Shown here piece after piece: positions 12,119 through 19,866 of a DNA stretch of 64,000 nucleotides. Origin of the DNA: Actinokineospora inagensis DSM 44258 (lineage in GTDB: Bacteria > Actinomycetota > Actinomycetes > Mycobacteriales > Pseudonocardiaceae); assembly GCF_000482865.1 (NCBI RefSeq), contig NZ_AXWW01000018.1:17746-81745 (forward strand). The letters run 5' to 3'. Position 1 is the stretch's first letter, and each line of letters opens with the position of its first letter. The position numbers were made by a program, and so were the translations under genes. The notes beneath the pieces were generated by a model. The model had not been told where the DNA came from and made no database searches. It saw only the letters and a list, made by a program, of their open reading frames with translations.

Positions 12119-12955
12119 TCAACCGCGCGCCGAGTAGGCCAAGCCGCGCAACAAGCCGAGCAGTTCGTCCATGCCCAGTGGGTTGACGCTCAGCCACGCG
12201 CCGCCGTCACCGTCGGCGGTGGCCAGCCGGAACCGGCCGCGTTCGGTGTCCAACCAGCGCACCTCGTGGCCGATCCGGCGCCACTGGTCCTCGGTGTCGT
12301 CGCGACCGGCGACACCGGCCTGGCCGTTGCCCAGCACGGGTTGCAGGTGCGACACCATCCGCCGGGCCACCCGGTCGTCGATGCCGTGCGCGCGCAGCAG
12401 GTCGTCGATCTCCGCCTGCGACAAGGGTTTCGGCGCACCGGGCTGACCGGGTTCGGGCATCCGGGCGAGCATCACCGCGAACGCCTCCTCCAGCGGCCGC
12501 AGCGGCAGGCTGAACGGGGCGGTCAACGGGGCCTCGGCGCGCGGGATCATCCGGGTCACCCGGCCCAGCGCCTCGTCCAACGTCGCCGCCCACAGGGTGA
12601 CCGCGCCGGTCGGGTCGGCCTGGTTCTGCGTCACCACAAGGGCTTCGTCGCGGGCGGCGAGGACCGCGACGCCGACCGTGCCGTGCGGCCCGTTGACCAC
12701 CACGTCGAGCACGCCGCTGCACGACCGCAGCAGGTAGACGAACTCCTCGGCCACGTCGAGCGGACCGGAGTCGTCGGCGAGACCGCGCGCGGCGAGCTCC
12801 TCGGCGGCGGCGCGGAACAGCACACCCCGCTCCACGTCGGAGAGCCCCGCCGACGGCACGTCGATCGGGAACGGCGGCCGCACCTCGGCGAAGGCGCACA
12901 ACAGGTCCAGCTCGACCGGGTGCAGACCGACCCCCGGCCCTCGCGTTACGGCCAC
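12119..12955 (-). CDS. EspG-like ESX secretion chaperone, copy B
   Basis: A 278-residue protein of the EspG (ESX secretion-associated) family. In mycobacteria EspG binds the tip of PPE proteins and keeps PE-PPE pairs soluble before type VII export. It is paralogous to the gene at 14.8 kb: both share HPVE/HPAE near the start, 'ELAARGLAD', 'HGIDD', 'HLQPVLGNGQAGVA' and 'EVRWLDT.RGRFRL...SVNPLG'. GTG 12955 lies 4 bases after the stop of the SPVGQ gene, so translation is probably coupled. It is the last gene of the left module. Family fairly sure; client inferred from context. Confidence 0.83.
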   Translation of the reverse strand: MAVTRGPGVGLHPVELDLLCAFAEVRPPFPIDVPSAGLSDVERGVLFRAAAEELAARGLADDSGPLDVAEEFVYLLRSCSGVLDVVVNGPHGTVGVAVLAARDEALVVTQNQADPTGAVTLWAATLDEALGRVTRMIPRAEAPLTAPFSLPLRPLEEAFAVMLARMPEPGQPGAPKPLSQAEIDDLLRAHGIDDRVARRMVSHLQPVLGNGQAGVAGRDDTEDQWRRIGHEVRWLDTERGRFRLATADGDGGAWLSVNPLGMDELLGLLRGLAYSARG

Positions 12956-12959
12956 CCGG

Positions 12960-13328
12960 TCAGGGGTTGGTGAAGCGCTGCGCGGAGTCGCCATCGCTGT
13001 CCTGGTACGCGGCGGCGGTCTTCTCGGCACTGGCGACGAACTCCGCCATGCGCCGCAACGCCTCGTCCAACTGGTCCTTGAGGCCGGAGTCACCGGCGAG
13101 CCGCCCGGTGAACTTGTCCGCGAGCTCCTGGCCGACCGGGCTGGTGCCCAGCATCGGCTGGTACGCGGGCTGGGTCAGCTCGGCGACGTCGGCGAAGATC
13201 GCGTCCAGGTCGGCGCGGACCTCGGCGACGGCGGCGGCGAACTCGCGCACCTGCTCCGGCCGCACGTGCCAGCCCGCGCCCGCGGGCACCCGGTCGCTGC
13301 CGCCCGCGTCGGGCTCGTCGACGTACAT
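12960..13328 (-). CDS. SPVGQ-domain protein B, probable ESX partner
   Basis: A 122-residue helical protein not assignable by name. About residues 30-115 are homologous to the C-terminal domain of the 622-residue protein at 15.6 kb, sharing 'GTSPVGQ.LA.KF..RL.G', 'EA.RRM..F..SAEK' and a Tyr-Asp-Asp-rich end. It is short, helical and without a signal peptide, and it is encoded 18 bases after a WXG/PPE-like protein and 4 bases before an EspG, the position a PE or Esx partner holds in mycobacteria. The start has AGGGAGACCAC upstream, the same sequence as its paralogue. Role inferred. Confidence 0.7.
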   Translation of the reverse strand: MYVDEPDAGGSDRVPAGAGWHVRPEQVREFAAAVAEVRADLDAIFADVAELTQPAYQPMLGTSPVGQELADKFTGRLAGDSGLKDQLDEALRRMAEFVASAEKTAAAYQDSDGDSAQRFTNP

Positions 13329-13346
13329 CTGTGGTCTCCCTGCGGG

Positions 13347-14729
13347 TCAGGCGCCGATGACCGGCGGCGCGGCGGTCAGGTCCGCCGTGGTGAACGGGTC
13401 TTCCTCGATCGGCACGCGCCTGCGGTGCTCGCCGTCCTCCTCGCCGTCGCGAGCGTTGGCGGGCATGCCGTAACCGTTGCGGGACCGGCCTTCCGGGTCG
13501 GTGAACCCGCTGGCCCTACCGAACCGGCTGCCGCCACGCAACCCACCGCGGCCACCGCGACCGGACCCGACTTCCTCGGCGCCGAGGCCGGTGCCGCCCC
13601 GTCCAGCGCGGCCGCGGCCACCGGCACCGTTCGCGCCGCGCGCACCCGGCCCGTACTCGGAACCCAGACCCGCGCCGCCCGCGCCCGAGCCGAAGCCCCG
13701 GCCCGCGACGTCGAGCCCGCCGGGCAGGTAACCGCCCGAGCCGATGCCGATGGTGTTGGGGCCGCCGGTGTTCCCGCCGGGCAGGGAGCCACCGGGACCC
13801 ATGCCGGTGAGGCCGCGCCAGTGGTTCTCCCAGCCGCTGTCGAACCCGGGCGTGAACGCCGGTGTCGTCTGCCCCATACCGGGCGTGCCGCTGAACACCG
13901 GAGCCGTGCCGGGCGGGGTCGACGGCGGCCTGCCCGGCCCACCAGGGACGTGCACGCCGGGGCCGGGGACACCTGTCCGGGGCGGCGGCGGGGAGTGCTG
14001 GTCCCCACCCGGGTCGACCCCGGTGGCGGGTGGGCTGAATCGCGGGGTGCGCCCGTCGATGCCGAGCACGGCGGTCTCGAAGCGCTGCATGGTCTGCACG
14101 GCCTTGCGCTTCATCTTCTTCTTGTTGCTGCCGAAGCCGAACGCGCTCGCGATACCGCCGATCGCCGCGCCGAACGCGGCCCCCACCGGGCCGCCGATGG
14201 CGAACCCGGCCACCGCGCCGCCACCGGCGGTCGCCAGGAACGGACTGCTCGGTGAGCCACCCGGCATGGTGCTCTGCGCCGACCGCAACGCGCCGCCCGC
14301 GTCCTGGATCGGGGTGGACATCTGCTGCGCGGTGCCGCCGAGCAGCGAGATCCACGCGGCGTTGGCGACGACCCGGCGGGACGCGTCCTCGGAGGCGGAA
14401 CCCGACCAGAACGGCATCAGCTTCGACAACGAGTGCGACAGGTCGCTCGCCGCCGTCGCGACCTTCTGGCCGTGCCGGGTCCACTCGGCCGCGAGCATGT
14501 CCAACTGCGACACGTTGGCGTGGTCACCGACCATCCGCTGCAGGGCGCTGAGGGAGTAACCGTCCCAGTTGACGCCGCCGGTGACGTACGTGTCGTCCTC
14601 GGCGCGGCGCCGCTTGCGCTCCTGGTCGGCGGACTGCTTGGCGGCGGCCGCCTGCTTGGCCCGCTCGGCCAGCCTGCGCGCGACAGCATCGAAATTGTCG
14701 ACACTGTCGGGGCTGTTGGGTTCCAGCAC
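13347..14729 (-). CDS. WXG/PPE-like ESX substrate B
   Basis: A 460-residue protein. Residues about 50-165 form a helical WXG domain ('TYVTGGVNWDGYSL', 'LMPFWSGSASE', 'STPIQDAGGAL') homologous to the protein at 17.5 kb. Next come an Ala/Gly-rich hydrophobic stretch, a basic patch (NKKKMKRK), a long Gly/Pro-rich low-complexity region and a conserved tail (EHRRR, EDPF, APPVIGA). GTG 14729 is chosen for AAGGAGGT 8 bases upstream. Probable type VII-exported protein paired with the following SPVGQ protein; export has not been shown and no secretion machinery is encoded nearby. Confidence 0.75.
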   Translation of the reverse strand: MLEPNSPDSVDNFDAVARRLAERAKQAAAAKQSADQERKRRRAEDDTYVTGGVNWDGYSLSALQRMVGDHANVSQLDMLAAEWTRHGQKVATAASDLSHSLSKLMPFWSGSASEDASRRVVANAAWISLLGGTAQQMSTPIQDAGGALRSAQSTMPGGSPSSPFLATAGGGAVAGFAIGGPVGAAFGAAIGGIASAFGFGSNKKKMKRKAVQTMQRFETAVLGIDGRTPRFSPPATGVDPGGDQHSPPPPRTGVPGPGVHVPGGPGRPPSTPPGTAPVFSGTPGMGQTTPAFTPGFDSGWENHWRGLTGMGPGGSLPGGNTGGPNTIGIGSGGYLPGGLDVAGRGFGSGAGGAGLGSEYGPGARGANGAGGRGRAGRGGTGLGAEEVGSGRGGRGGLRGGSRFGRASGFTDPEGRSRNGYGMPANARDGEEDGEHRRRVPIEEDPFTTADLTAAPPVIGA

Positions 14730-14812
14730 CCGCGGCCACCTCCTTCTCGTGCCTGTCAGCGCCGCAACCGTAACCGATGGGACCGACAATTCCGCCAACT
14801 TCTTGCCAACTG

Positions 14813-15643
14813 CTAATGCCAGAGGTCGGCTGCCAACGTCCGCAGCTCGGACCGCAGCTCCTCCCGGCCGAGCGGGTTGACGCTCATCCACTCGTCGTCG
14901 CCGTCGGCCAGCCGGAACCGGCCGCGGGCCGTGTCCAGCCAGCGCACCTCGGCGCTGCCCCGGACCCACTCGTCGGCGTACCCGCGGCGCACCGCGACCC
15001 CGGCCTGGCCGTTGCCCAGGACCGGCTGCAGGTGCGTGGTCATCCGCCGGGCGGTCGCGTCGTCGATGCCGTGCCGGCGCAGCAGCGCGTCGACCTCGTC
15101 GCCCCCGAGCCTGCGGTCCCGCTCGGTCGCCACCTGGATCTCCCGGTGCACTTGGTCCAACGCGCGCCGGGGCAGGCTGAACGGGGCCGCCATCGCCGCG
15201 TCCAACTCGGGCACCGCGCCCACCAAGTGGTCCACCGCGTCGTGCAGCGACAACGCCAGCAGGTGCACCCGCGCGCCCGGCGCGCCGATCTCCTGGCGCA
15301 CCAAAAGCGCCTCGTCCCGCTGCGCGAGCACCAACGCGCCCCTTACCTGCCCGCGCCGCGCCACCATCAGGTCCAGCGCGCCCGCGCCGTCGCGCAGCAG
15401 GTGCACGAAGTCACCGGCCACCCCGCGCGGCCCACGCCCGTCCGCCAGCCCGCGCGCCGCCAACTCGGCCCGCGCCACCCCGAACGCCGCCCGCCGGTCC
15501 CCCAACGCGTTGATCCGCAACGGGAACGGCGGCGCCACCTCGGCGAAGGTGCACAGCAGCTCCACCTCGGCCGGGTGCAGCAGCGCCTGAGCCCCGCCCC
15601 GGTTCCCCGAGTCGGGCTCCAAGCCGGTGGGCAGCTCGGTCAC
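14813..15643 (-). CDS. EspG-like ESX secretion chaperone, copy A
   Basis: A 276-residue EspG-family protein, paralogue of the gene at 12.1 kb, with 'ELAARGLADG', 'LLRRHGIDD', 'HLQPVLGNGQAGVA' and 'MSVNPLG'. Its GTG overlaps the stop of the 622-residue SPVGQ protein by four bases (GTGA), so the two are translationally coupled. By analogy with mycobacterial EspG it should bind the cognate WXG/PPE-like protein A. Family assignment fairly sure; partner inferred from gene order. Confidence 0.83.
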   Translation of the reverse strand: MTELPTGLEPDSGNRGGAQALLHPAEVELLCTFAEVAPPFPLRINALGDRRAAFGVARAELAARGLADGRGPRGVAGDFVHLLRDGAGALDLMVARRGQVRGALVLAQRDEALLVRQEIGAPGARVHLLALSLHDAVDHLVGAVPELDAAMAAPFSLPRRALDQVHREIQVATERDRRLGGDEVDALLRRHGIDDATARRMTTHLQPVLGNGQAGVAVRRGYADEWVRGSAEVRWLDTARGRFRLADGDDEWMSVNPLGREELRSELRTLAADLWH

Positions 15644-17508
15644 CACTGGCCGCCCCGGTCGTGCCGCTGGATGTCCCCCCGCGCCGAGTCGTCGACGTCG
15701 CGGTAGCTGTCGCGCGCCTTCTCGGCGCTCTCGATGAACTGGTCCATCCGCCGCATCGCCTCGGACAGCAGCCCGCGCAGCCCGTTGGCCCCGTTGAGCC
15801 GGTCGTCGAACTTCTTCGCCAACTGCTGCCCGACCGGACTGGTCCCCAACTTCGGCGTGTACCCGTCCCCCTGCATCCGCTCCACCCGGGACTGCACCGC
15901 CGCCAACCCGAACCGGGCGGAGGTCACCGCCATGGCGAACCCGTGCAGCTTCTCCGGGTCGATGTCCCAAAACCCGCTCGCGTTCTTGGCGGGCTGCGCG
16001 GTCGTCTGCCCAGTGGCCACCGGCGGCTGACCGGACGAGTCAGCGGGCCGGGTCCCGTCACCGGTCTGGCCGGTCGACGTGCTCGGATCGTGCGGGTCGT
16101 ACTGCTTTCCCGAGTTCCCCGAGTCCGGAGTCGACTGCTGCGGCTGGGGCTGACCCGCCTTCCCTGGATCACCCGTCGTCCCGGTCGGCGCGGGCTTCGG
16201 GTAAGGGTCACCGCCACCTTGCCCGGCACCGGTCTTCGGCCAACCATGCCCGTACCGCTGCTCATGATCACGCTGCCCCGGAACCGACGCACCCGGCGGC
16301 AGGGTGTCGGGCACCGAGTGCGCGTGCGCACGCCCCATCCCCAAATCAGGCGCGGGAAGCTGAACGGTCGCTCCCTGCTGGGCCTGCGGGGGCACGGCCC
16401 CCGACGCGCCAGGACCCGGCTGAACCGTCCCCGGCACCTGCCCCGGCATCGGACTCGGCGCCGCGGGCGTACCCGCGGTCGGGCCTGGGGCAGGCACCGA
16501 CTGGACCGGGGCGGCCGCCGGCTGCACGACTCCCGCGTGCACGGCGGGCAACGGCTGCACAGCGGACAACGCGCCAGTCGGATCAGGCGTGAGCGGAGCA
16601 CCGCCCGGAAGCACCCCGGCCGAAGGCGCCGATAACGGCCCCGGCACCGCGGTGCCAACCGGAACCGAACTCGGCACGGCACTCAACGGAGACGGACCAG
16701 CCACAATCGGCCCAGGCACCGCGACTTGCGCGGGCAACGAGGCAGGCACGCCCCCCGCCACCGGGACAACCGGGCCTGGCACACCAGTGGACACCGGGAC
16801 CTGACCGCCACCAGGCACCACGACCGGCCCAGGCAACGGAGCGGGCGCGGCACCTGCAAACGGCGAAACCGGAACACCAAACGAACCAGGCGCATCAGCG
16901 GACACCGGGAACTGACTGCCACCAGGCATCGCGACGTGCGCGGGCAATGAGGTGGGCAACGGCGCGGGCACGGCACCCGCCGGCGGCGACACCGGGGCGC
17001 CAATCGGACCGGACGCGCCAGTGGACACCGGGAACTGACTGCCGCCGGGTACCGCGACTTGCGCGGGCAACGGAGTGGGTGCGGCACCTGCCTGCGGCGA
17101 GACCGGGACGCCGAACGGACCGGGCGCACCAGTGGGCGGCGGGATCTGGGCGCCGCCGGGGATCGCGGCCGAGGGGGCTGTCGAGCCGGGTAAGAACGGG
17201 CTCGGGGTGGGGTTCTGGGTCCCGATCGGGACGACGCCGCTGGGTGGGGTGGGCGGCGGGGTCGGGACCGGGTGCGGGGGCAGCGGGGTCGGGGTGGGGC
17301 TCGGGGGCACCGGGATGGGGCTCGGGTCGGGCGGCACCGGGATGGGATCCGGGCTGGGCTCGGTGGTGCCGCCGGTGATGGAGCCGGAGATCGACCCGGA
17401 CACCAGGTCGGCCACGTGCGGGACGGCGAAGACGTCGGTCACCGACGGCTGGTCCACGGCGAAGGCGTGGGTCGCGTCGGGGGCGGGCTGCTGGTCGTAC
17501 TGGCGCAT
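15640..17508 (-). CDS. Proline-rich protein with C-terminal SPVGQ domain A
   Basis: The 622 residues have three parts. A short N-terminus (1-50) ends in 'VADLVSGSISGSITGG'. A Pro/Ala/Val/Gly-rich region runs from about 50 to 500 with roughly 37-41-residue repeats around 'VPGGSQFPVSTGA'. A C-terminal helical domain (about 515-610) starts FWDIDPEKLHGFA and carries LGTSPVGQQLAKKF and RRMDQFIESAEK, paralogous to the 122-residue protein of the left module. No signal peptide or membrane helix. The start has GGGAGACCACGACG before ATG. The stalk could span the cell wall or hold proteins together; this is inference. Confidence 0.72.
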   Translation of the reverse strand: MRQYDQQPAPDATHAFAVDQPSVTDVFAVPHVADLVSGSISGSITGGTTEPSPDPIPVPPDPSPIPVPPSPTPTPLPPHPVPTPPPTPPSGVVPIGTQNPTPSPFLPGSTAPSAAIPGGAQIPPPTGAPGPFGVPVSPQAGAAPTPLPAQVAVPGGSQFPVSTGASGPIGAPVSPPAGAVPAPLPTSLPAHVAMPGGSQFPVSADAPGSFGVPVSPFAGAAPAPLPGPVVVPGGGQVPVSTGVPGPVVPVAGGVPASLPAQVAVPGPIVAGPSPLSAVPSSVPVGTAVPGPLSAPSAGVLPGGAPLTPDPTGALSAVQPLPAVHAGVVQPAAAPVQSVPAPGPTAGTPAAPSPMPGQVPGTVQPGPGASGAVPPQAQQGATVQLPAPDLGMGRAHAHSVPDTLPPGASVPGQRDHEQRYGHGWPKTGAGQGGGDPYPKPAPTGTTGDPGKAGQPQPQQSTPDSGNSGKQYDPHDPSTSTGQTGDGTRPADSSGQPPVATGQTTAQPAKNASGFWDIDPEKLHGFAMAVTSARFGLAAVQSRVERMQGDGYTPKLGTSPVGQQLAKKFDDRLNGANGLRGLLSEAMRRMDQFIESAEKARDSYRDVDDSARGDIQRHDRGGQW

Positions 17509-17526
17509 CGTCGTGGTCTCCCTGGC

Positions 17527-18648
17527 TCAGAGCCCGATCACCGGGGGCGAGGCCTTCTGGTCGAGGGCGAACGGGTCCTCGCCCTCGAACGGGTAGCGCC
17601 TGCGGTGCTCACCGCCGCCGCTCTGGCCCGCGCCCATACCGCCGCCCATCGGCATGCCGCCCATGCCCGTGCCGCCGCCCGCGCCGGACCCGGCCGCCGC
17701 GGCGGCCGGGGTGCTCGGGACGGCGGTGCGAGCGGTGCCCCCGGTGAGCGCCTCGGTCGCCCCGACCGATCCGCCGGACTGCAGCGGGCCGCGCGAGGCG
17801 TCCGGGGTGGACGCGCCGGAGGAGCCACCGCCGTAGCCGCCACTGTAGCCACCGGCGGACCCGCCCGCCGTCGAACCGGCCGCGGCGCGGTGGCCGTCGT
17901 CGAAGCCTTGGGCGGCGGTGGTGGGGTCGCCGGTGCCCGCGGTGAGGGTGGCCCACCGCAGTTGGATGTCGGTGTTGTACGAGACCGGGGTGCCGACCGA
18001 GGTCTGCGGCGGCGTGGTGGTCGGGTCGCCCGGCTGCTCGTGCAGTTGCGGGTCGCGCTGGGCGAACCGCGGGGTGGCCTGGTCGATGCCGATCGCGGCG
18101 CCTTCGAACCGCTTCATCACGTCGACGGCCTGGGCTTTCAGCTTGGCCTGTTCCTGTTCGGCGGTGAACGCGCTCTGCGACCCGGTGGCGGCGCCGTTGA
18201 CGGCGGCGGCGACCGGCCCGCCGGACGCCAGCCCCTTGTCGGCGCTGTCGACGGCGAGCGCGGGTGGCGTGGCGGGCACGACCGGCAACGCGGCCATCGC
18301 CACTTGGGCGGCCTTGAGGGCGCCGGCGGCTTCCTGGATGGGCGTACCGATCTCGTGTGCGGTCTCGCCGAGGTCGGACACCCACTGGGCGTTGAGGGCC
18401 ACGTCGTGCCGGGCCTGTTCGGCGGCGCTGCCGGACCAGTAGTTCATCAGCTCGTCGAGGGCCTGGCTGAGCACGGCGGCGGCGTCGACGACCTCGCTGC
18501 CCGCGGCCCGCCAGTCGTCGGCGAGTTGTTCGAGTTGGGGCGCGCTCGCCTGGTCGTCGACCATCTTGACCAGGTCGGCCAGGGAGTACTTGTCCCAGTC
18601 CACGCCGCCGGTGACGTACCGGTCGCCGCCCTGCTGCCCAGTAACCAT
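17527..18648 (-). CDS. WXG/PPE-like ESX substrate A
   Basis: A 373-residue protein. Residues about 10-125 form the helical domain shared with substrate B: 'YVTGGVDWDKYSLADLVKMV', then 'LMNYWSGSAAEQA' with the W-x-G turn, and 'GTPIQEAAGALKAAQ'. The middle is Ala-rich, followed by a Gly/Ser-rich low-complexity region and the tail EHRRRYPFE, EDPF, SPPVIGL. ATG 18648 follows GGGGAG by 6 bases. It heads the right-hand module; the SPVGQ gene follows after 18 bases, the identical gap seen in module B. Probable type VII substrate; not proven. Confidence 0.77.
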   Translation of the reverse strand: MVTGQQGGDRYVTGGVDWDKYSLADLVKMVDDQASAPQLEQLADDWRAAGSEVVDAAAVLSQALDELMNYWSGSAAEQARHDVALNAQWVSDLGETAHEIGTPIQEAAGALKAAQVAMAALPVVPATPPALAVDSADKGLASGGPVAAAVNGAATGSQSAFTAEQEQAKLKAQAVDVMKRFEGAAIGIDQATPRFAQRDPQLHEQPGDPTTTPPQTSVGTPVSYNTDIQLRWATLTAGTGDPTTAAQGFDDGHRAAAGSTAGGSAGGYSGGYGGGSSGASTPDASRGPLQSGGSVGATEALTGGTARTAVPSTPAAAAAGSGAGGGTGMGGMPMGGGMGAGQSGGGEHRRRYPFEGEDPFALDQKASPPVIGL

Positions 18649-19029
18649 CGCTCGCTCCCCTCGGCGGCTACCCGGGCCACCGCCGTTGGCCCCACGCCCA
18701 AACCGCCGACGCTGACGATCGCTTCCGACGATCACGCTATCGGTTTGGACGCACGGCGGACACCAACCGTTCCGCGCTCATCACTCCTCGTTCCCACGAG
18801 CACATCGCTGCCACCGTGGGTTGCCGTTTCCGCCATCTTCGTACCAGGCAATCCCGACGGGCCCGGCACCGCCCACAGCCGCGGTGGTGGCGCGCGGGCG
18901 AACGGTTGGTTACCGATCGTTCACGTGGTCGCGGTGGGTGGCGTAGGGGTCACCCGGGTGGCGCAGTCGTGCGCGGGGGCCGGGTCGCGCGGGAAACTGG
19001 CGGTGGTCGGCGGCGATCGGGGGTTGGTC
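18649..19029. other. Divergent spacer, ESX module / ParB-like gene
   Basis: About 380 bases between the divergent substrate A and ParB-like genes. It should hold both promoters. A TAGCGT sequence read leftwards near 18735 could be a -10 element for the module, but no well-spaced -35 was seen. No small gene or repeat is evident. Confidence 0.4.
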
Positions 19030-19866
19030 ATGGTTCGGGACACGGGTTTCCCGGCGGCGGACGCGGAGAACGACTTCCTGCGAGCGCGCCGCCGCCAGGT
19101 GTTGGCCAGGTTGGGCGCGTGGCTGCGCCGCGAGCCGGACGACGTGAACATCATGCTGCCCTTCGACGAGGTGGTCGCGGTGTTGGGCCGTGCGGGTGAA
19201 CGTCGGCTCGGGTCGCGGGTGGTGGCGCTGGACTCGATCGTCGGCAGCGTCGACCGGTCCCGCGAGTTCGACCGCCGGTTCCGCCCGACGTCGGCGCGGT
19301 CCCGGCACCGGTGGGAGCGCCTCGCCCGTGCTTCCCGGCGCGGCGAGTCGACCCCGCCGATCGAGGTCTACCGCGTCGGCGAACTGCACTTCGTGGTCGA
19401 CGGCCACCACCGGGTGTCGGTGGCGCACGCCCTCGGCCTCGACTCGATCGACGCGGTGGTCACCGAGATCGTCACCCGCCTCCCCGCCGACGGCATCTGC
19501 TACCGGGGCGACCTGATCACGAAGGACTTCCACCGGATCTTCCTGGACCGCGTCCCGCTCGATCCCGCCCGCCGCGCCCGGGTCACCCTGTCCGACCCGT
19601 GGGCCTACGCCGAGCTCAGCGAGGCCGTGGAGGCGTGGGGCTACCGGCTCATGCAGGACTCCCGGACCTTCCTGGACCGCGCGACGGTGGCCCACCGCTG
19701 GTTCGACGAGGAGTTCGTCCCGGTGGTGGACATGGTCCACCAGGCGGGCATCAGCACCACCCGCACCGACGCCGAGTCCTACCTGTGGGTCATCGGCGAA
19801 CGCTACCGACTCCTCCGCTCGCACCACTGGACCACCGAGGTGTTCACCACCCTCCGCGACCGCTAG
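19030..19866 (+). CDS. ParB-like nuclease-domain protein
   Basis: A 278-residue protein. Residues about 105-160 resemble the ParB/Srx N-terminal nuclease-like fold: 'PPIEVYRVGELHFVVDGHHR' followed by VSVAHALG, where DGHHR matches the ParB-type GxxR box. No helix-turn-helix or spacer domain typical of chromosome-segregation ParB is visible, and no parA adjoins it, so a role in segregation is doubtful. ATG 19030 was chosen; the upstream GGGGG is a fair ribosome site. Confidence 0.72.
   Translation: MVRDTGFPAADAENDFLRARRRQVLARLGAWLRREPDDVNIMLPFDEVVAVLGRAGERRLGSRVVALDSIVGSVDRSREFDRRFRPTSARSRHRWERLARASRRGESTPPIEVYRVGELHFVVDGHHRVSVAHALGLDSIDAVVTEIVTRLPADGICYRGDLITKDFHRIFLDRVPLDPARRARVTLSDPWAYAELSEAVEAWGYRLMQDSRTFLDRATVAHRWFDEEFVPVVDMVHQAGISTTRTDAESYLWVIGERYRLLRSHHWTTEVFTTLRDR

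What the first reader, a model, noticed from the sequence alone, without database searches (positions are those of the whole stretch)
12119..18648. Two tandem paralogous three-gene ESX substrate modules
Substrate-like WXG/PPE protein, SPVGQ-domain protein and EspG-like chaperone occur twice in the same order (17527-18648, 15640-17508, 14813-15643; and 13347-14729, 12960-13328, 12119-12955). Each gene is recognisably paralogous to its counterpart, and the first intergenic gap is 18 bases in both modules. The family knowledge (mycobacterial EspG binds PPE-type clients) makes a dedicated chaperone-substrate-partner set plausible, yet no EccB/C/D/E or mycosin gene is in the window. I infer an orphan type VII secretion cargo set with a partner family that does not look like PE or EsxAB.
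Basis: partly seen in the sequence, partly recalled or inferred. Interest (0 to 1): 0.8.

Follow-up and report, generated by a model that had tools for sequence, protein, structure and literature searches.

The report
Dispersed PE/PPE/EspG-type secretion cassettes
Two neighbouring three-gene sets in a soil actinomycete each encode a likely secreted protein pair plus its own chaperone, resembling the mycobacterial PE-PPE-EspG trio but lying far from any secretion machine, with a shared end-tag that hints at which machine they may use.

Summary
Window 12119-18648 (minus strand) holds two paralogous operon-like trios: PPE-like, 'SPVGQ' partner, EspG (46-49% identity between counterparts). EspG is firm (PF14011, E 1e-27, 7e-30). 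The PPE-like protein passes Pfam's cut-off in module A only; module A's model matches PPE41/PPE15/PPE4 best. The partner passes no Pfam cut-off but seems to fill the PE slot: its model's best PDB match is PE8, PE25 third (E 0.4 or worse), and YxxxD/E ends its last helix in 42 of 42 relatives; 42 of 42 PPE-like proteins have WxG. So 'does not look like PE' holds for sequence, not for predicted fold or signal. The module is found so far only in some Pseudonocardiaceae; one whole-trio duplication preceded the Actinokineospora/Actinophytocola split. In five single-contig relatives 0 of 53 EspG genes lie within 30 kb of an EccB gene, so orphan cassettes are the rule there. The PPE-like proteins end in a PxVIG tail, as does the PPE-like protein of the ESX-4-like core locus (37/41, 17/18; other proteins 3/914). 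Best reading: chaperoned heterodimers exported in trans, probably by that core. Complex, secretion and routing are inferred. New variant of a known kind.

The parts
17527..18648 (-). Module A: PPE-like substrate (373 aa)
   Evidence: Pfam PPE PF00823 E 2.5e-7, above cut-off; AlphaFold domain model's nine best PDB matches are PPE chains of PE-PPE structures
18430..18438 (-). WSG (WxG) turn of the module A PPE-like protein
   Evidence: WxG in 42 of 42 family members
17533..17547 (-). C-terminal PPVIG tail, module A
   Evidence: sequence; in relatives 37/41 module and 17/18 ESX-4-linked PPE-like proteins against 3/914 others
15640..17508 (-). Module A: PE-slot partner (622 aa), conserved domain at the C-terminus
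   Evidence: 48% identity to partner B over 98 aa; family alignment A4
15982..17508 (-). Pro-rich N-terminal extension (about 509 aa) of partner A
   Evidence: open frame from 18 bases after the PPE-like stop; in-frame extensions of 134-722 aa in the 6 of 9 other Actinokineospora A modules that gave a value; third-position G+C only 0.80
15826..15849 (-). LGTSPVGQ loop of partner A
   Evidence: LGTSP invariant in the 17-row alignment A4
15691..15705 (-). YRDVD = YxxxD/E secretion signal, partner A
   Evidence: 42 of 42 family members, 36 by script and 6 by eye
14813..15643 (-). Module A: EspG chaperone (276 aa)
   Evidence: PF14011 E 1.4e-27, 97.4 bits against cut-off 27
13347..14729 (-). Module B: PPE-like substrate (460 aa)
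   Evidence: Pfam PPE E 1.1e-4, below cut-off; 46% identity to module A
14400..14408 (-). WSG (WxG) turn of the module B PPE-like protein
   Evidence: alignment
14235..14240 (-). Phe-Leu pair in the predicted tip loop of the module B PPE-like protein, candidate 'hh' EspG contact
   Evidence: read; aromatic-hydrophobic pair at this place in 12 of 13 other B members (the 13th was printed at a wrong offset); role inferred from PMC12241500 passages
13353..13367 (-). C-terminal PPVIG tail, module B
12960..13328 (-). Module B: PE-slot partner (122 aa)
   Evidence: AlphaFold model pLDDT 76.9; best PDB match chain A of PE8-PPE15-EspG5, E 0.43; EspC PF10824 only E 0.03
13128..13151 (-). LGTSPVGQ loop of partner B
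12993..13007 (-). YQDSD = YxxxD/E secretion signal, partner B
12119..12955 (-). Module B: EspG chaperone (278 aa)
   Evidence: PF14011 E 7.1e-30, 104.8 bits

Best explanation
Each module encodes a chaperoned type VII secretion substrate. The PPE-like protein (WxG turn) and the SPVGQ protein (PE slot, YxxxD/E signal) would form a PE-PPE-like four-helix heterodimer; the adjacent EspG would cap the PPE tip until the pair reaches an EccC-type ATPase. No ESX genes being adjacent, export would be in trans, most likely by the genome's ESX-4-like locus (contig C44: EccB, PE-like, PPE-like, MycP, EccD, EccC), whose own PPE-like protein ends in the same PxVIG tail. The two modules arose by one duplication of the whole trio and diverged in the tip region, which suggests separate chaperone-client specificity. 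Shown by computation: families, predicted folds, motifs, synteny, duplication, distance from the core. Inferred: heterodimer, EspG binding, secretion, choice of machine, role outside the cell.
For: EspG profile matches. PPE model: nine best PDB matches are PPE chains of PE-PPE or PE-PPE-EspG structures, prob 1.00, E 1.7e-3 to 3.3e-2. Partner model: best match chain A of the PE8-PPE15-EspG5 entry, third chain A of an EspG5-PE25-PPE41 entry (TM 0.75 and 0.73 by target length; chain lengths 78 and 84 imply the PE subunits), other PE and many Esx chains in the listing. YxxxD/E in 42 of 42 partners (36 by script, 6 by eye) against 26 of 248 background small proteins; WxG in 42 of 42 PPE-like proteins. 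EspG follows the partner in 41 of 42 copies and a PPE-like gene precedes it in 40 of 42; of the two others one is at a contig end and one has only a 49-bit PPE fragment at a contig end (window included). Whole-trio duplication: EspG clade A 99/98, B 96/94; PPE A 100/100; SPVGQ A 100/98, B 84/78. PxVIG tail: 37 of 41 module PPE-like, 17 of 18 ESX-4-linked PPE-like, 3 of 914 other proteins. Six of six Actinophytocola have the double module (or what is left of it) beside MycP-EccD-EccC.
Against: No complex could be modelled. Foldseek E-values are modest (best 1.7e-3 for PPE, 0.43 for the partner, whose second-best match is unrelated), and helical hairpins match widely; no control fold was run. 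Profiles of all three families found no solved relative (limits E 0.1 for EspG, 1 for PPE, 5 for the partner, the last with three chance-level hits). Module B PPE is under Pfam's PPE cut-off. The PPE tree has A as a clade but not B (48% of bootstrap trees). The shared PxVIG tail may be inherited among PPE paralogues rather than a routing tag, and a basic stretch before it is common in module proteins (28 of 40) but not in ESX-4 ones (1 of 17). The Actinophytocola linkage is one shared rearrangement, so one event, not six. Two other ESX loci exist (C11, C18). In M. tuberculosis ESX-4 did not affect PPE36 or PPE62 localization (section heading of PMC10117145). The own C44 PE-like protein lacks YxxxD/E, though 14 of 17 relatives' copies have it.
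Confidence: 0.72

Rival explanations
1. The trio is a PE/PPE/EspG-type cassette but is exported by one of the two other ESX loci (C11 or C18), or by several, and the PxVIG tail is only shared ancestry.
For: The genome has three EccB loci, with genes read by eye as EccC and EccD beside those at C11 and C18; mycobacterial work says the EspG-bound domain, not the general signal, sets system specificity (PMC5311947).
Against: The tail joins these PPE-like proteins to the PPE-like protein of the C44-type locus. In the C11 and C18 stretches read, no gene matched the module PPE, partner or EspG queries. The C44-type EccB, recognised by its two-piece profile match, is in 19 of 19 genomes examined.
Confidence: 0.2
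2. The SPVGQ protein is not the PE-slot partner: it is an EspC-like protein exported on its own or as a homodimer, and the PPE-like protein pairs with something else.
For: Weak EspC (PF10824) similarity, E 0.03, partner B only; best PE matches have E 0.43 and 0.69; the order PPE-partner-EspG differs from the PE-PPE-EspG order of this genome's five other trios.
Against: Near-strict co-occurrence beside PPE and EspG; WxG and YxxxD/E in 42 of 42 members of the two families; the five other trios also carry a small YxxxD/E protein.
Confidence: 0.13
3. The modules are decaying or domesticated and no longer serve secretion.
For: Module B is broken in Actinophytocola gossypii (EspG fragment and PPE remnant); one Actinokineospora genome has a single copy.
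Against: Kept in 28 of 200 family genomes sampled, with both signals intact in all 42 copies; A and B keep all three genes across two genera, apart from the A. gossypii B module and contig ends.
Confidence: 0.06

Closest known systems
Mycobacterial PE-PPE-EspG sets (PE25-PPE41-EspG5, PE8-PPE15-EspG5, PE5-PPE4-EspG3)
   Same: EspG family, PPE-like predicted fold, a small helical partner with YxxxD/E, WxG on the PPE, chaperone gene beside the clients
   Different: Partner not recognised by the Pfam PE model; gene order PPE-partner-EspG; in five single-contig relatives no EspG lies within 98 kb of an EccB; PxVIG tail; partner A has its extension in front of the PE-like domain; module A lacks an evident hydrophobic pair at the tip
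PE-like/PPE-like pair of the ESX-4-like locus in Pseudonocardiaceae (own contig C44)
   Same: Small protein with YxxxD/E in 14 of 17 relatives' copies, next to a larger protein ending in PxVIG (17 of 18); own larger protein has WxG
   Different: No gene matching the module EspG profile in the 18 loci read; lies inside the core locus; own PE-like copy lacks YxxxD/E; pair not called at one locus (L138)
EspC family (PF10824)
   Same: Small helical T7SS-linked protein; weak profile match of partner B
   Different: E 0.03, below cut-off; adjacent EspG and PPE-like genes
ESX-4EVOL clusters of Nocardia, Tsukamurella and others (PMC4791881, passages)
   Same: espG, pe and ppe genes outside the classical mycobacterial clusters
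   Different: There the genes lie inside an ESX cluster with eccA and eccE; here they are dispersed orphan cassettes

Membership tests
EspG (PF14011) | Match to the curated profile above cut-off, near full length | tested here: met
   97.4 and 104.8 bits against cut-off 27, profile 3-244 and 2-239 of 245
EspG (PF14011) | Binds the PPE tip and prevents aggregation | not testable with these tools
   no complex prediction or biochemistry
PPE (PF00823) | Match to the curated profile above cut-off | tested here: inconclusive
   module A met (31.3 bits against 26); module B not met (22.6)
PPE (PF00823) | PPE helical fold with WxG turn | tested here: met
   module A model's nine best PDB matches are PPE chains; module B not folded; WxG 42 of 42
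PPE (PF00823) | N-terminal Pro-Pro-Glu motif | not tested
   not scored; no PPE tripeptide is evident at the start of either protein
PPE (PF00823) | Hydrophobic 'hh' pair between helices 4 and 5 | tested here: inconclusive
   pair in module B, pair or FxW in single modules, not evident in module A
PE (PF00934) | Match to the Pfam PE profile | tested here: not met
   no PE hit at E up to 1 for either partner
PE (PF00934) | PE-like helical hairpin carrying YxxxD/E after the second helix | tested here: inconclusive
   signal 42 of 42; fold match PE8 best and PE25 third but E 0.43 and 0.69
EspC (PF10824) | Match to the curated profile above cut-off | tested here: not met
   partner B 15.2 bits against 23.5; partner A none
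ESX/T7SSa gene cluster | EccB, EccC, EccD, MycP beside the substrates | tested here: not met
   EccB profile finds none on the window's contig; no Ecc or MycP seen among called window genes; adjacent only in Actinophytocola

The most novel reading that the evidence does not exclude
In Pseudonocardiaceae one ancestral ESX-4-like translocon serves many dispersed, self-contained PE/PPE/EspG cassettes, each with its own chaperone, and the C-terminal PxVIG tail shared by cargo PPEs and the core-locus PPE is a machine-recognition tag not described so far. EspG-PE-PPE chaperoned export would then not be an add-on of mycobacterial ESX clusters but an older, cluster-independent trait of the order.
Probability: 0.33. 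Interest if true: 0.75.

Novelty: new variant of a known kind. Interest (0 to 1): 0.55.

Why it matters
A published model has espG, pe and ppe joining a plasmid-borne ESX cluster after Corynebacterium and Rhodococcus diverged; its table marks two clusters for Saccharopolyspora erythraea, in what appears to be the ESX-4 column (header not seen; PMC4791881, passages). Here 58 of 60 family genomes sampled carry EspG, 2 to 20 copies in those that have it, and in five single-contig genomes none is near an EccB gene. The chaperone-client trio can therefore exist apart from ESX clusters. That makes two questions testable in soil bacteria: how an ESX-4-type machine recognises clients, and what a C-terminal tail adds to the YxxxD/E plus WxG signal.

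Tried and rejected
Rejected: chance resemblance of the modules. Recent mobile insertion: of 29 locus records, 25 have the ParB-like gene upstream and 19 have CorA (with MaoC and the 370-aa gene after it) downstream; the other ten are 7 Actinophytocola records, one contig end (L115), one without these neighbours (L107) and one with the CorA set on the other side (L096). Partner family as EspC: below cut-off. Identical 18-base gaps as a signal: gaps vary in relatives. Linkage to ESX in Actinophytocola as independent evidence: it is one shared reciprocal rearrangement (EccB-PE-PPE joined to CorA-MaoC-370, module joined to MycP-EccD-EccC, 6 of 6 genomes).

Led nowhere: solved-structure searches by sequence profile gave no relative for any of the three families. 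The partner scan of genome contigs returned 8 loci from 131 candidate stretches, with patterns made from two sequences only. Paper searches turned up nothing on this module (listings, and passages of a few papers). EccE, and MycP/EccC/EccD by profile across the genome, were not searched.

Rows dropped or missed: tail count: 4 of 41 module PPE lack the tail, namely two contig-end truncations, one ORF whose C-terminus looks shifted, and one 22-bit hit; one of the 3 'others' with the tail is a 511-aa gene between a partner-like and an EspG gene; PPE-labelled genes of 200 bits or fewer (8) were counted in no class, as were the two window proteins. Trees used 41 EspG, 42 PPE and 42 SPVGQ rows; the EspG of L110 was not called and the A. 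gossypii B fragment was left out. Extension table: 16 of 40 rows gave no value because the loop motif did not match the script's pattern or the contig ended. Control in another family: I chose nine stretches holding 12 of the 31 EspG matches listed outside the own genome.
Full report
What is there. On the minus strand of 12119-18648 six genes form two operon-like trios. Module A: PPE-like 18648-17527, partner 17508-15640, EspG 15643-14813. Module B: PPE-like 14729-13347, partner 13328-12960, EspG 12955-12119. Counterparts share 46%, 48% and 49% identity with E-values from 2e-24 to 3e-68, so paralogy is not chance.

Families. Both EspG proteins match PF14011 over nearly the whole profile at about 100 bits against a cut-off of 27. 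The module A PPE-like protein passes the PPE cut-off, module B does not (22.6 against 26). The partners pass no cut-off; partner B resembles EspC at E 0.03 only. NCBIfam adds nothing above cut-off. Profiles of 17 members of each family find no solved relative by sequence.

Predicted folds. The AlphaFold model of the module A PPE domain (mean pLDDT 71.6) has as its nine best PDB matches only chains of PPE length from PE-PPE or PE-PPE-EspG structures, E 1.7e-3 to 3.3e-2, prob 1.00. The model of partner B (pLDDT 76.9) matches chain A of the PE8-PPE15-EspG5 entry best (prob 0.99, TM 0.75 by target length) and chain A of an EspG5-PE25-PPE41 entry third; I read these as PE8 and PE25 from their lengths. 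The second match is unrelated, the listing also holds many Esx hairpins and unrelated helical proteins, and no E-value is below 0.4. I read this as supportive, not decisive. A complex could not be modelled.

Signals. In 42 copies from 28 genomes, YxxxD/E follows the last helix of the partner in 36 by script and in the remaining 6 by eye (their loop reads LGTSPPA[RK], so the script's anchor failed); 26 of 248 background small proteins have the pattern near the C-terminus. WxG is in 42 of 42 PPE-like proteins. These are the two halves of the PE-PPE secretion signal as described in PMC12241500 (passages); PMC5311947 (abstract and Discussion) adds that YxxxD/E does not set system specificity while the EspG-bound domain does. 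The predicted tip loop carries an aromatic-hydrophobic pair in module B and a pair or FxW in single-module relatives, where mycobacterial PPEs have the EspG-binding 'hh' pair; module A mostly reads LPxxPxxPPA instead. I infer that A and B have separate chaperone specificity.

Distribution. With the partner profile, 28 of 200 family genomes have a strong match (over 100 bits): 10 of the own genus, itself included (none of the same genus is among the 20 misses shown; 125 misses are not listed), 6 of the genus that includes Actinophytocola, and 12 from five other genera, each with one strong copy; a further 27 have only weak matches near 35 bits. In a 200-genome sample of the order only 5 genomes, all of the own genus, match at E 1e-12; none of the other 18 strong genomes can have been in that sample, so it is a thin test. 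Contig lengths identify the own genus as Actinokineospora and g32 as Actinophytocola (compare); the family name Pseudonocardiaceae is recalled. The order is PPE-partner-EspG: EspG follows in 41 of 42 and a PPE-like gene precedes in 40 of 42.

History. In the EspG tree A (16 rows) and B (14 rows) are each one side of a well-supported branch (99/98 and 96/94) and each contains both genera. PPE and partner trees support A (100/100, 100/98); B is supported in the partner tree at 84/78 and is not a single group in the best PPE tree. One duplication of the whole trio before the two genera split is the simplest account. The flanks (a ParB-like gene on one side, CorA-MaoC-370 on the other; names by eye, the first with a sub-threshold DUF4032 match) are shared by most single- and double-module genomes: ParB-like in 25 and CorA in 19 of 29 records, with the exceptions listed under Tried and rejected. 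I infer that the orphan position is ancestral.

The secretion machine. The own genome has three EccB loci. The one on C44 lies near rpoA-rplQ-truA (names by eye) and reads EccB, PE-like, PPE-like, MycP, EccD, EccC (EccD, subtilase and FtsK domains by Pfam). I call it ESX-4-like because mycobacterial ESX-4 has that neighbourhood, which I recall. Its EccB, recognised by a two-piece profile match, is in 19 of 19 genomes examined. In 12 of 12 assessable loci outside Actinophytocola EccB, MycP, EccD and EccC lie together (one more, L141, ends at a contig end); in 6 of 6 Actinophytocola EccB-PE-PPE is joined to CorA-MaoC-370, and the double module (in A. gossypii with a broken B) is joined to MycP-EccD-EccC. 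This is a reciprocal rearrangement with one breakpoint at the module edge and one inside the ESX locus. It is one event and weak evidence for a functional link.

The tail. The PPE-like proteins vary greatly in their linkers but end in a tail of the form ...DPF..D.K(A)SPPVIG. The PPE-like protein of the ESX-4-like locus ends in ...DP..IFGKP.K.SP.VIG. Counting motifs of the type P(x)[VI][IV]G or [PSA][VI][IV]G in the last 13 residues gives 37 of 41, 17 of 18, and 3 of 914 other proteins of 100 aa or more. A basic H[KR]R[KR] stretch before it is in 28 of 40 module proteins, in 1 of 17 ESX-4 ones and in 0 of 541 others, so that part is not shared. Five further PPE-like proteins beside EspG genes in the own genome carry related endings: APSVIG, APPVIG, MPPVIG (here some way from the end), APVLG and AVLG. 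I propose a recognition role; common descent without that role is not excluded.

How general. The own genome has ten EspG genes. Seven are in PE/PPE/EspG-like trios: the two modules and five others in the order PE-like, PPE-like, EspG, some with an extra lipoprotein-like gene. Of those five only 1 PE-like and 2 PPE-like proteins pass a Pfam cut-off; the rest are judged on position, a YxxxD/E in the small protein and a WxG in the large one (5 of 5 each). Three EspG genes are not in such a trio. Among 60 family genomes 58 have EspG. In five single-contig genomes of three genera 0 of 53 EspG matches lie within 30 kb of an EccB; the nearest is 98.8 kb away. As a small control, nine chosen stretches around EspG from another family of the order were read; seven show an Ecc or mycosin gene in the stretch. 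In a phylum-wide sample EspG occurred in 8 of 296 genomes, all of the own order.

Partner A's extension. In the window the conserved domain of partner A is preceded by about 509 residues of Pro-rich sequence, open from 18 bases after the PPE-like stop. Of nine other Actinokineospora A modules six gave a value, all with 134-722 residues there and 14-18 after the domain; six Actinophytocola A partners have 32-140 in front and, in 5 of 6, 202-351 behind; the 11 B partners measured have 5-19 in front and 10-12 behind. Coding bias in the extension is weak (third-position G+C 0.80) and my gene caller started the gene later, so its start rests on the open frame and conservation. A variable extension on either side of a fixed PE-like domain suggests that it is the exported passenger; this is inference.

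Known or new. PE-PPE-EspG trios are well known in mycobacteria, so the kind is known. A 2024 survey notes EspG in most T7SSa systems except some ESX-4 subtypes and cites ESX-4 as the only T7SS in non-mycobacterial relatives such as Nocardia and Gordonia (PMC11217815, passages). My paper searches found no description of this module or of orphan EspG cassettes in this family, nor of the PxVIG tail; the library lacks most subscription papers, so this is not proof of absence. I file it as a new variant: orphan position as the rule, a partner family outside the PE profile, changed gene order, and a shared C-terminal tail.

Noticed in passing
L045-L048 (own genome contigs C11 and C18): Two further ESX loci carry genes read as EccC, EccD and EccB plus WXG100-size genes, followed by very large proteins (2344 and 3424 aa called from the stretch edge) that look like polymorphic secreted proteins.
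   Followed up: no
L102 13053-15053 (genome G030): Between CorA and MaoC a second, strongly diverged trio (PPE 29 bits, partner 27 bits, EspG 117 bits) follows the main module, ending in VIGGDDD: another case of tandem cassettes, perhaps independent.
   Followed up: no
L055 7972-8803, L089 7382-8250 (Actinophytocola gossypii): Module B is reduced to a PPE remnant and an EspG fragment while module A is intact.
   Followed up: partly
window 19003-19866: Divergent ParB-like gene (sub-threshold DUF4032 match) is the most constant neighbour of the module, 25 of 29 records.
   Followed up: partly
L130, L131, L135-L137 between truA or its side and EccB: A second protein weakly like mycosin (about 30-45 bits) and two other genes (about 243 and 394-428 aa) stand beside the ESX-4-like EccB in several relatives.
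   Followed up: no
L044 1054-3673 (own contig C30): A weak EspG (39.6 bits) stands between a WXG100-like 172-aa protein and a 440-aa protein with weak lipase/hydrolase matches, possibly a different kind of EspG client.
   Followed up: no
L096 (genome G119): The CorA-MaoC-370 set lies on the upstream side of the double module instead of downstream, a further rearrangement at this place.
   Followed up: no
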